Positions 3,007-7,235 of a stretch of DNA of 7,310 nucleotides are shown piece after piece. The position numbers were made by a program, and so were the translations under genes. Origin of the DNA: JBHIER01 sp046760705 [NCBI: bacterium] (lineage in GTDB: Bacteria; JBHIER01; G020348925); assembly GCA_046760705.1 (NCBI GenBank), contig JBHIER010000162.1:1-7310 (forward strand), in the 5' to 3' direction. The notes below the pieces were generated by a model. It had not been told where the DNA came from, did no database searches, and saw nothing but the letters and a program-made list of their open reading frames with translations. Within the stretch, counting starts at the first letter, position 1. Every line of letters begins with the position of its first letter.

Positions 3007-3155
3007 ATGTACATTGATGATTTCATCTTGTTGCCCGATATCCTTGAAAAACTGGCCGTCAAACACCGGGTCACGCAGGACGAGGCTGCACAGCTCTGAT
3101 CTTGAGTGCGCGAGTTCTGGATAGGAAGGAGCGAAGACGGTATGAACAAAAGTAA
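3007..3155 (+). pseudogene. Internally deleted BrnT-like toxin gene (remnant)
   Basis: Two pieces of one toxin gene lie end to end in different frames. The first (3007-3099) encodes 30 residues beginning MYIDDFILLPDILEKLAVKH and continuing to DEAAQL before a TGA. This resembles the N-terminus of small BrnT-like toxins, where the equivalent segment runs on into a conserved EVFF-type region. The second piece begins at 3099 in another frame, reads ILSARVLDRKERRRYEQK and stops at TAA 3153-3155. This resembles the C-terminus of the same toxins (Ser-Ala-Arg followed by a basic KERRRYE tail). The family is normally about 90 residues, so roughly 40-50 central residues are missing, with the junction near 3093-3100. 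The loss also breaks the frame, so no working toxin can be made. The tail overlaps the antitoxin start by 14 nt, the usual toxin-then-antitoxin order. The family name comes from motif recognition and was not searched. Confidence 0.75.
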
Positions 3156-3423
3156 TGATACACAACTGTCCAGCATCTCGAAGGCGCGCCCGCTCGAAGA
3201 GATTGCTGACTTTTGGGATACTCATAGTCTGGCCGACTATTGGGACAACACTCACGAGGTTGAATTCGAAATCAGGGCCAAACGTAGAAGACGGGTAACA
3301 CTTGACCAAGAGGTTTTTACCAGGATTGAGGCTCAGGCCCGCGCCCGTGGTATTTTGCCCGAAACATTGGTCAACCTATGGTTGGCTGAACGACTACATA
3401 GAGATAGGGTAAGCGAACGATAG
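3142..3423 (+). CDS. CopG/BrnA-like ribbon-helix-helix antitoxin
   Basis: This 93-residue protein resembles the CopG/BrnA-like antitoxins that pair with BrnT-like toxins, neutralising the toxin and repressing their shared operon. The N-terminal half carries the acidic and aromatic signature EEIADFWDTHSLADYWD (19-35), followed by the basic run RAKRRRR (45-51). The C-terminal half fits a ribbon-helix-helix DNA-binding fold: strand RVTLD (51-55), helix EVFTRIEAQARARG (57-70), then PETLVNLWLAERL (73-85). I prefer the ATG at 3142 over an in-frame GTG at 3106 because AGGAAGGAG (3123-3131) lies 10 nt upstream and the signature begins just after it. The start overlaps the end of the toxin remnant by 14 nt. 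The gene appears intact although its toxin is destroyed, so it is now an orphan antitoxin, perhaps still a regulator or a decoy for related systems. Confidence 0.85.
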   Translation: MNKSNDTQLSSISKARPLEEIADFWDTHSLADYWDNTHEVEFEIRAKRRRRVTLDQEVFTRIEAQARARGILPETLVNLWLAERLHRDRVSER

Positions 3424-3653: not shown

Positions 3654-4124
3654 ATGGCCATTATCGGTCAGATTTTTTTCTGGTTGTTCATCAACCTGCC
3701 TGGCACGTTCCTCATGGCTGGTGTTGCTTTTGTCTACGCCCTCTTGACCCGCTTTGAAACATTCACCCCATCCGTCCTGATCGCCCTTCTGGGGCTGGCC
3801 GCTCTGGCCGAGCTGATCGAATATGTGATCGGAACGTTCATCACCGTTAAGCACGGCGCATCGAGGTGGGGTGTTCTTGGGGCTATCGGCGGGGGCATCC
3901 TGGGGGCCATCTGGGGCACGCCTATCATGCCTGTTGTGGGCACCGTCATCGGCGGGTTCCTCGGGGCCTACCTGGGAGCTTTCCTCTTGGAATACCTCAA
4001 TTACAAAAATACGGAAAGGGCAGTCCAGGCCGGCTACGGGGCCTTTGTCGGCAAAATCGGTGGGAGTCTCTCCAAACTGATCGTAGCCTTGGCTATGATC
4101 ATCATCATGGTTCAAAGAATGTGA
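3654..4124 (+). CDS. DUF456 family small membrane protein
   Basis: The 156-residue product is very hydrophobic, with likely membrane helices at about 5-29, 40-62, 73-95, 93-115 and 138-153. Its pattern matches the DUF456 family: the segment LAELIEYVIGT (51-61), then KHGASRWGVLGAIGG (66-80), then two glycine-zipper-like helices, GAIGGGILGAIWG (76-88) and GTVIGGFLGAYLGAF (96-110). It ends with a GAFVGKIGG region and a final hydrophobic helix. The biochemical role of DUF456 is unknown. The glycine spacing suggests tight helix packing in the inner membrane. An in-frame TGA at 3642-3644 rules out an earlier start, and GAGG (3643-3646) lies 7 nt before the ATG. The next gene starts 8 nt after the stop, so the two are probably co-transcribed. 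Family assignment is by recognition of the pattern, not by search. Confidence 0.8.
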   Translation: MAIIGQIFFWLFINLPGTFLMAGVAFVYALLTRFETFTPSVLIALLGLAALAELIEYVIGTFITVKHGASRWGVLGAIGGGILGAIWGTPIMPVVGTVIGGFLGAYLGAFLLEYLNYKNTERAVQAGYGAFVGKIGGSLSKLIVALAMIIIMVQRM

Positions 4125-4132
4125 TAGGTCAA

Positions 4133-7100
4133 ATGAGAAAGATCGGCTTTTCGCTCATCGGTTGTGCGCTCTTGCTCAGTCCGGCCTGGGCCGAGGCCCC
4201 TCAGGTGACGAATGTGAATATCAAACCGAGGCCGGCTTACGGCCCTCAGGCGTTGGTCGGTTACGGTGACTACTCCGATCCCGACCACGATTACGAATCA
4301 GGGTCTGAGTATCGCTGGATCAAAAACGGTGCCCAGATCTCTTCTGGAAAAATCTCCCAAAGCTTTCTGGCTTCCTTTGACGGAGGCTTGAACACCACCG
4401 ACGGCGAAGCTCCTCTGGTCTCACTCGCGATAGAATTTACCACCGGGAAAACAGGGCGATTGTCTCGTATTCGACTCCGAAGGCACCCGGCTCGCTTACG
4501 CTGCCCCAGGGAACTTGGACACCGAATCTGGGGCCGTCGATTTCTGGCTTCAGTTGCTTTACCCCATCACCGACCCGATTTACGACGACTGGAATCTCCT
4601 CCTCCATTATCCGACAGACGAAGGATACCTCCTGGGTATGGAGTTTGGAGGGGACCGGATTTACGGGACCACCTATCTGCCCAGCGGCTACGTCGACCCC
4701 TGGGTGGAGCAGGCTCCCGATTGGGGCCCGGGCCAGTGGCACCACCTTGCCTTCTGCTGGAGCGCGGTCGACTCGCTGCTCACCGTCTATTATGACGGGA
4801 GATTGGTCGGTCAAGCTCAGGGATATTACCCGCCGCCGGGGCAGGGCGACCGATTCTACATCGGCTCCGATGAATGGGGCGGACGCCAGGCTTACGCTTC
4901 CATTGACGAGTTCCGACTACACAACCGCTTTTTAACAGAATCGGAAGTGGCCGCCCTTTACCGATACGGATGGGTGACTCACCTCGGTGAGACCGTTCTC
5001 GACTCGACGCACTTTGCTCCGGGAGACACCATCGTCTTCCAGTACATCCCCAAAGACGGTGGCTCTTTCGGAGATCCGGCCAATTCGCCACCCCTGGTGG
5101 TTGAGCCTGTGCCCATCCTCGACTCCGGCCCGCCGTCTGGCCTTTTGGCGGCCGGGACTTCAACGCTGGAGCTCTTTCTCTTAACCACTCAGGCCGCCGA
5201 GTGCCGATGGGGGGAGTCCTCACAGGTTCCGTATCATACCATGACCCGGGTCTTTTCCGGCCTCGGGACCACCCACCATTCCTTTGTTGTCAACGGCCTC
5301 TCCGATGGGGAGTACTTGAACTTCGGGGTTAAGTGCTCCTGCTGGGTTGAGGGGTACGATCCTGACGGCTACTCTCTCGACCTCCGTTATCGAGTGCTGT
5401 TGCCGTACAACCCTCCCTTTCCCCGAATTGCCAATCACCGGACCAACTTCGACCCGGCTATTCCCCTCGACTTCTATGCTGGATACGACTACATCGATGT
5501 GGCCCCATGGGATATCACCCAAGCCGAAATTGATGCCATCCACACCCTCAATCCCCACGTCAAAATCTTAGCTACCCTGGACGCCACCTACGGCGGCCCT
5601 CTCCAGGATCGGGCCCTTACCGCTCAGCCTGGAGAGCCGGAGTACAACTGGCTGCTTCGGAACACGGCCGGGGCTGTCATCCTCATCGACTTCTGTGGCC
5701 ATCCCATGTTCAACCTCACCGACACCACTCTGGCCGACTACATGGCCGACTTCAACTACGAGCGGTTTCTTGACTGCGGCCTGGCTTTTGACGGCATCTT
5801 CTTCGACCGCATCCATCAAGATATCTCCTGGTTCTCCGACGACATCGACTCCGACCTCAATGGGGTGGCCGACGATCCGGCTGATCTTGATTCCCGCTGG
5901 CTGGCTGGAATGTACCGTTTCCTGTCTCGTCTGCGAGAACATCTGCCCCACGCCGTCATTACGGGCAACGACGCCGCCCTCATATTTACGCCATATCTCA
6001 ATGGCAGAGAGTATGAGTGGGAGACGACGGCCATTCTCGATTTCTCAGAATGGGGCGTCAGTTGGGACAGCCTCCTGGCCGGTTATCTCCGATGGAACGA
6101 AGAGGGCCTGTCTCCAGCGGTGACATTTATCATTACGAGTTCCCCGACGTGGCTGATCGAAAGTTATGGTCTTTATCCCCGGGAAAAGATTCCCCCTGAC
6201 TCCCTGGAGTGGGCCAGAACCCGGTACGGTCGTGTCCGCTTCGGGCTGTGCACCGCCCTCATGGGCGACGGGCTGTCCATGTACGACTTCGGCACCACCT
6301 GGCACGGCAACTTGTGGTGGTACGATGAATATGACGTTAACCTCGGCTATCCCTCTGGCGAAGCTTACAAATATCTCGACGCTACGGTCGTTATCGATTC
6401 CTTCGATTTTGAGGACGGGACGGCCACCGGTTTCAGATTGAACAACTGGAACGGAATGTCCGCCTCTGTTACCTCTGATCCGGGTGAAGTTGTGGCGGGT
6501 AATTACTCCATAAAGGGAACAAATACCGATCCTGAAGGGCGTTGGAACGAATTTTTGCACACCGATCCGGGGGTGATCGGTTTAGATCCTTTAGAGACAT
6601 ACACAGTTAGCTTTGATTATAAAATACTGGCCGAGGCTGTTCAGGGATGCTTTTACTTTTTGGTCAGGACCCAGACCGGAGGTGAGGAGTACGACACCGG
6701 TGGACTTGAGTTTGACCCTCCGATAGGAGTTGTCGGCTCGCAAAGCGTGAGCTTCACCCTCGGTGATTTCACCGATTACTATCTCATCTTCGGCATTGAG
6801 TATGACGGGTCGATCTCTGTGGACAACATCACCATCTCCAGGGGCGAGGGCGGGGTCTGGCGCCGCGACTTCGACAACGGCATGGCCCTGGTCAACTCCT
6901 CCCCCGACTCGGTGCCCGTGGCTCTGGAAGGGCCATATCGGAAGCTCGCGGGGCTGCAGGCCCCGGACTACAATGACGGCTCTCTGGTCACCAGCCTCGT
7001 CTTGCCCGGACACGACGGAATCATCCTGCTAAAAGAGCTGCCACCTACCCAAAAGGGCGACGTCAACAGCGACGGCCAGGTTAGCATCCTCGACGTCGTC

Positions 7101-7235
7101 CTCGTCATCAACATCATTCTCGGCACCTACGAACCTACGTCTGATCAACTTTGGGCGGCCGACATGAACGATGACGGCAGCGTCGACATCTTGGATGTGG
7201 TGGAGATTGTGAACGAGATTTTGGGCGAAATTTAA
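4133..7235 (+). CDS. Secreted multidomain dockerin protein with putative glycosidase domain (frameshifted)
   Basis: Correcting one extra base near 4448-4451 gives about 1,033 residues; numbering follows that. A signal peptide (1-20, cut after AWA) is followed by an Ig-like part with SDPDHDYESGSEYRWIKNG (about 47-65). A LamG domain (about 85-275; GQWHHLAFCW, DGRLVGQ, SIDEFRLHNR) interrupts it, and the Ig-like strands seem to resume at VLDSTHFAPGD (288-298). An FN3-like domain (about 325-425; CRWGE, HSFVVNGLSDGEY) precedes a TIM-barrel-like region (about 430-750) resembling putative glycosidases such as GHL15. Its possible acidic catalytic residues lie in FDGIFFDR (552-559), GREYEWE (624-630) and WWYDEYDVNLG (728-738). 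A jelly-roll carbohydrate-binding-like domain (about 755-903), a small beta domain (905-968) and a type I dockerin (975-1030) complete it. Both dockerin calcium loops, DVNSDGQVSILD and DMNDDGSVDILD, keep their ligands. The upstream frame ends at 4795. The downstream frame alone could start only at TTG 4515, inside LamG and without a ribosome binding site. The substrate is unknown, and no cohesin is in the window. Confidence 0.8.
4448..4451 (+). other. Frameshift site (+1) within the dockerin gene
   Basis: The frame from ATG 4133 makes sense up to FTTGK at about 4436-4450, then turns into Arg-rich text (RLSRIRLRRH) typical of an out-of-frame read. The frame that is sensible downstream has a TAG at 4431-4433 and reads GDCLVFDSEGTRLAY from about 4455, a normal LamG opening. 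Removing one A from the AAAA run at 4448-4451 joins them as GKQGDCLVFD. The homopolymer is short, and the surrounding bases do not form a known recoding signal. Confidence 0.8.

What the first reader, a model, noticed from the sequence alone, without database searches (positions are those of the whole stretch)
4133..7235. A large dockerin-bearing putative glycosidase is split by a +1 frameshift near its N-terminus
The signal peptide and first Ig-like strands are in one frame and the remaining 900 or so residues in another. The crossover is confined between the TAG at 4431-4433 and about 4470. The whole downstream frame stays open and well conserved in motif, including both calcium loops, so decay would have to be very recent. 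A single-base indel in the assembly is the simplest explanation. A new pseudogene is possible, and recoding is least likely because the site matches no known slippery sequence.
Basis: partly seen in the sequence, partly recalled or inferred. Interest (0 to 1): 0.6.

Follow-up and report, generated by a model that had tools for sequence, protein, structure and literature searches.

The report
Frameshifted dockerin-bearing sugar-cleaving enzyme gene
A gene for a large secreted sugar-cleaving enzyme is split by a shift of reading frame near its start; the relatives found carry it unbroken, so this looks like an ordinary recent mutation or a sequencing error rather than a new kind of gene control.

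Summary
The gene's start (4133 to about 4450: leader-like peptide, first part of an N-terminal domain) lies in one frame; the rest (to 7235: Laminin_G_3, GHL15 glycosidase barrel, CBM-like sandwich, type I dockerin) lies in the +1 frame. Codon usage and an ortholog-profile scan both put the crossover at about 4442-4469. The two full-length orthologs found (38% identity, no dockerin) each read in one frame, so the ancestral gene was probably continuous. Nothing found favours recoding: downstream RNA folds like shuffles, and neither ortholog is split. The long frame's first start codon (TTG 4515) lies inside a domain, without a leader. The barrel shows no decay (23 of 24 invariant columns kept). 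I see one recent frameshift, real or an assembly error; reads would decide and none were held. I lean slightly to a real mutation: within 1.5 kb upstream lie a toxin gene with an internal deletion of about 136 nt and a DUF456 gene with a nine-codon deletion, and longer homopolymers keep frame. Ordinary finding. In passing: the closest genome found has a very large cohesin and dockerin repertoire.

The parts
4133..4450 (+). 5' part of the gene in frame 2: leader-like peptide (about 4133-4192, by eye) and first part of the N-terminal domain; the frame runs on out of register to a TGA ending at 4795
   Evidence: no signal-peptide predictor was run
4431..4433 (+). TAG in the downstream frame: upstream limit of that frame
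4442..4469 (+). crossover zone of the two frames (profile scan 4442-4460; codon usage 4444-4469)
4452..7235 (+). 3' part of the gene in frame 3, open to the stop; first start codon TTG 4515
4506..4952 (+). Laminin_G_3 (concanavalin-like) domain, 63.5 bits
5541..6371 (+). GHL15 (PF14885) glycosidase-like TIM barrel, 48.6 bits; conserved Asp at 5805-5807 and Glu at 6015-6017
6399..6698 (+). CBM_4_9-like beta sandwich (22.6 bits, below the 25.9 cut-off; model matches CBM4/CBM22 structures)
7053..7223 (+). type I dockerin, 48.5 bits, profile 1-57 of 57
3654..4124 (+). DUF456 gene, 8 bases before 4133; lacks nine codons near its N-terminus that ten aligned homologs have
3007..3155 (+). remnant of a toxin gene (name BrnT-like recalled; Pfam matches neither piece): first 30 and last about 20 residues survive in different frames, middle lost
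3145..3423 (+). CopG-type antitoxin gene, intact (PF12441, 36.5 bits against 28; NCBIfam BrnA only 22.6 against 60)

Best explanation
The stretch 4133-7235 was one gene for a secreted, multi-domain, dockerin-bearing GHL15-type glycosidase that closely followed a DUF456 gene. A recent small indel at about 4442-4469, most simply one base, has put it out of register. If the sequence is correct, ribosomes starting at 4133 make a 220-residue fragment ending in unrelated residues. The long frame could be read only from internal starts (the first is TTG 4515) without a leader, so the enzyme should not be exported and the allele should be null. Shown: the two frames, collinearity with one-frame orthologs, intact downstream domains. 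Inferred: that the change is in the genome (slightly favoured), its size, and that it abolishes function.
For: Two full-length orthologs in single ORFs of 1133 and 1121 aa; pieces collinear with them; joined pieces score 11 bits above the sum of the parts; codon usage switches at the same place. Decay in the same 1.5 kb: a toxin gene shorter by about 136 nt than the intact toxins of 94-97 aa beside the antitoxin in 5 of 5 loci examined (of 11 antitoxin matches), and a nine-codon loss in DUF456 seen in 1 of 11 aligned sequences. Homopolymers longer than those at the site (T7 at 3673, G6 at 951 and 5209, several A5) keep frame. The closest genome found has another dockerin gene at the same place and no GHL15 copy, so the slot varies.
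Against: No reads and no second genome with this allele. The 933 downstream codons hold no stop, and 23 of 24 columns invariant in the 25 other aligned members are kept, so a real inactivation must be young, which fits an assembly error as well. The neighbouring lesions are of unknown age and another kind and do not prove this one real. The ortholog evidence for the N-terminal piece rests on two distant sequences, one of them weak (E 0.012).
Confidence: 0.52

Rival explanations
1. Assembly or consensus error: the organism's gene is continuous and the contig is out of register at the crossover.
For: Downstream frame open and family residues kept; orthologs continuous; one isolated small event in an otherwise clean gene; no reads to confirm it.
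Against: Runs at the site are only 3-4 bases; T7, G6 and A5 runs elsewhere in coding parts keep frame; larger deletions occur close by.
Confidence: 0.4
2. Programmed +1 frameshift: ribosomes shift at the junction and make a full-length secreted enzyme at a set fraction.
For: By inspection, the run of A at the site would let a tRNA re-pair after a +1 slip; the downstream frame looks constrained.
Against: 2 of 2 orthologs use one frame; the 100 nt downstream fold like shuffles, z 0.16, 99 of 200 shuffles at least as stable; the next zero-frame codon is a sense codon, ACA, 13 of 1912 codons counted; a three-term paper search (programmed frameshift, glycoside hydrolase, dockerin) returned 0.
Confidence: 0.03
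3. Two separate proteins: a short secreted domain and a leaderless enzyme from an internal start such as TTG 4515.
For: AGGGA lies at 4508-4512, just before TTG 4515; both frames are open.
Against: The start lies inside the LamG domain; no leader by eye; a dockerin enzyme is expected outside the cell; past the crossover the upstream frame has unfavourable codon usage and its profile alignment ends at residue 106; 0 of 2 orthologs have this arrangement.
Confidence: 0.03
4. Strain mixture: the shift is a real variant in part of the population and the contig happened to follow it.
For: Fits a young, otherwise undecayed allele.
Against: Not tested; no reads held.
Confidence: 0.02

Closest known systems
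   Same: Collinear N-terminal region, LamG-like domain, GHL15 barrel and C-terminal sandwich; 38% identity over about 870 residues
   Different: Continuous frame; no dockerin found in L001 by Pfam, and the one dockerin match of G003 lies on another contig
GHL15 (Pfam PF14885, hypothetical glycosyl hydrolase family 15)
   Same: Over the curated cut-off; DGxFxD and the Glu of the NGx motif region kept
   Different: A paper search for GHL15 returned 0, so no activity is known to me; 34 of 46 loci found bear Patescibacteria-type names
Solved TIM barrels 8rg3/8rg5 (PbFucA, labelled GH114-type) and GH168 endo-fucanases (9jof, 9nhf)
   Same: Profile match E 3e-9 to 8rg5 with both acids aligned; model TM about 0.6 by target length
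   Different: 14-18% identity; substrate cannot be inferred; a cycloisomaltooligosaccharide glucanotransferase (3wno) also ranks second with TM 0.27 by target length
Single-indel pseudogenes of accessory secreted enzymes (general knowledge)
   Same: One frame change, rest intact
   Different: Reality of the change not verified by reads

Membership tests
Type I dockerin | Duplicated calcium-loop module matching PF00404 | tested here: met
   48.5 bits against a cut-off of 22.9, profile 1-57 of 57
Type I dockerin | Binding to a cohesin | not testable with these tools
   No binding data; the closest genome found has cohesins, the window's own genome is not held
GHL15 glycosidase-like | Match to PF14885 over the curated cut-off | tested here: met
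   48.6 bits against 27
GHL15 glycosidase-like | Conserved family residues including the two acids | tested here: met
   23 of 24 columns invariant in 25 other sequences kept; 11 of 17 columns of 90% or more kept
GHL15 glycosidase-like | Glycosidase activity | not testable with these tools
   Needs an assay
Pseudogene | Frame broken relative to intact orthologs | tested here: met
Pseudogene | Further lesions or relaxed constraint | tested here: not met
   933 codons open, conserved residues kept
Pseudogene | The lesion is in the genome and not only in the assembly | not testable with these tools
   No reads or own genome held
Programmed +1 frameshift | Two-frame arrangement conserved in relatives | tested here: not met
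   0 of 2 full-length orthologs; no close relative was available
Programmed +1 frameshift | Stimulatory RNA structure just downstream | tested here: not met
   4455-4554: z 0.16
Programmed +1 frameshift | Slow or stop codon at the shift site | tested here: inconclusive
   Next zero-frame codon ACA is a sense codon, 13 of 1912 codons counted

The most novel reading that the evidence does not exclude
A +1 recoding site in the leader-proximal domain sets how much of a dockerin-bearing glycosidase is exported; it would be peculiar to this lineage, for which no close relative with the gene was found.
Probability: 0.03. Interest if true: 0.7.

Novelty: new member of a known kind. Interest (0 to 1): 0.12.

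Why it matters
Mostly for annotation: a mechanical ORF list gives a leaderless 906-aa ORF at 4515 and a separate ORF over the start, hiding what was one secreted dockerin-type glycosidase gene. If the shift is real, it adds to a small cluster of gene decay downstream of secF. The domain set (LamG, GHL15, CBM-like, dockerin) and the cohesin-rich closest genome may deserve study; the frameshift itself changes no open question.

Tried and rejected
Recoding: looked for two-frame relatives, downstream RNA structure, codon rarity and literature; nothing in favour. Internal start: the first is TTG 4515, inside a domain. Ig domain in the N-terminal piece: no Pfam match. The joined peptide scores 66.8 bits with Laminin_G_3 against 63.5 for the downstream part, and the match still begins after the junction, so Pfam says little about the join. 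A -2 step scores nearly as well as +1 (110.7 against 112.5 bits), so the indel's size is not proved.

Same locus elsewhere: phage records gave two weak matches in secD and secF; viral contigs none; plasmids 6 Rhodococcus records over residues 800-866 or so. Of 98 genomes around G061, 3 matched part of the query and none the whole. Of 98 around G001, 21 matched, only G001 and G003 over nearly the full length. A phylum search returned one genome. These sets are unnamed, their kinship is not told, and they largely overlap. Codon-substitution tests of selection were not tried: the orthologs are 38% identical. Papers: listings only for (36, 46 and 58 returned 0); passages of PMC12054363.

Full report
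What is there. The window reads secD (184-1971), secF (1998-2951), a toxin remnant and CopG-type antitoxin (3007-3423), DUF456 (3654-4124) and the split gene (4133-7235), all on the + strand. The 5' part of the split gene begins 8 bases after the DUF456 stop with a leader-like peptide (by eye) in frame 2. The long 3' part is open in frame 3 from just after the TAG at 4431-4433 to the stop ending at 7235. Pfam finds Laminin_G_3 (63.5 bits), GHL15 (48.6), CBM_4_9 (22.6, below its cut-off), Dockerin_1 (48.5) and a sub-threshold Lipase_GDSL_2 match (16.7 against 32.9) in the 3' part, and nothing in the 5' part.

Are the two parts one gene? Very probably. One scan of genome contigs gave 46 loci. 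One, L001 from a Ca. Fermentibacteria MAG, matches nearly the whole length (residues 13-887, 38% identity); 34 of 46 bear Patescibacteria-type names and match from the barrel region on; three (L038, L044, L046) match only at the dockerin end. Both are continuous ORFs, of 1133 and 1121 aa. A profile of these two matches the frame-2 peptide at positions 17-111 and the frame-3 peptide at 121-994. In a scan of crossover points, +1-joined peptides reach 112.5 bits against 82.3 and 18.8 for the parts apart, best at 4442-4460; -2 joins reach 110.7. Codon usage trained on 1912 codons of the window's genes switches frame, with the best crossovers at 4444-4469. The N-terminal match is modest (E 5e-7 to L001; 0.012 to L062) and rests on two distant orthologs.

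Where the window comes from. No genome is held for it. SecD is 81% identical to that of G061, in which L038 lies (record CP070758.1, titled Gemmatimonadota bacterium isolate bin29 chromosome). By score the next of 59 genomes searched is at 57%. In G061 the order secD, secF, DUF456 is kept, but DUF456 is followed 9 bases later by another ORF of 815 aa with a dockerin (peptidase-like by eye). No blastn match continues past DUF456, and no GHL15 copy was found in G061. The slot after DUF456 is therefore variable.

Is the break real? It cannot be settled here. For an error: the event is small and single, the 933 downstream codons are open, and 23 of 24 columns invariant in the other 25 aligned members are kept (11 of 17 at the 90% level; I aligned 25 of the 43 loci that matched). 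For a real mutation: decay lies close by. The toxin gene beside the antitoxin keeps only its first 30 and last about 20 residues, in different frames, while 5 of 5 loci examined (of 11 antitoxin matches in 7 of 96 genomes) hold an intact toxin ORF of 94-97 aa there; the spacing implies a loss of about 136 nt. DUF456 lacks nine residues that 10 of 10 aligned homologs have (ten loci of 22 matching genomes). Longer homopolymers in coding frames (T7 at 3673, G6 at 951 and 5209, several A5) are unbroken. I give a real, recent mutation 0.52 and an assembly error 0.40.

Is it recoding? Unlikely (0.03). Neither ortholog shares the arrangement, the 100 nt downstream fold like shuffles (z 0.16), and the codon after the run is a sense codon. 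Conservation within the lineage could not be tested, since no close relative with the gene was found.

What the enzyme is. Residues 320-870 of the long frame were modelled (mean pLDDT 76.6, pTM 0.70, 26 sequences; many sandwich blocks at 57-75). Foldseek's best PDB matches include TIM barrels labelled PbFucA, GH168 endo-fucanase and a Planctomycetota protein (TM about 0.6 by target length, 14-18% identity), cycloisomaltooligosaccharide glucanotransferases with low TM, and CBM22/CBM4 for the sandwich. A profile search reaches 8rg5/8rg3 at E 3e-9 and 4e-9, with the Asp of DGxFxD and the conserved Glu aligned. A GH114/GH191 paper describes an aspartate nucleophile and a glutamate acid/base (PMC12054363, passages only). 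A glycosidase with this acid pair is plausible; mechanism and substrate are inference.

Verdict.

Noticed in passing
G061 (CP070758.1), whole genome: The closest genome found has 81 cohesin matches (73 over the Pfam cut-off) and at least 148 dockerin matches (150 of 525 candidates scored); in at least six ORFs a cohesin is followed within 100 bases by a dockerin. From memory this rivals the largest cellulosome genomes. G001 and G003 have 0 cohesins and 4 and 1 dockerins. Two paper searches (listings only) showed no title naming such a genome.
   Followed up: partly
window 3007-3155: Toxin gene (BrnT-like, name recalled) reduced to its two ends by an internal deletion of about 136 nt, with the antitoxin (3145-3423) intact.
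   Followed up: yes
window 3685-3691: DUF456 lacks nine codons near its N-terminus compared with ten homologs, in frame.
   Followed up: partly
window 4125-4133 and L061:4857-4866: A dockerin-bearing gene follows DUF456 within 10 bases in both the window and G061, but the two differ (GHL15 glycosidase against a peptidase-like protein by eye): a variable slot behind secDF-DUF456.
   Followed up: no
L002-L045: GHL15 barrels with the invariant motif WWYDEYDV occur in many Patescibacteria-type MAGs (34 of 46 loci by record title), small-genome bacteria where I did not expect them.
   Followed up: no
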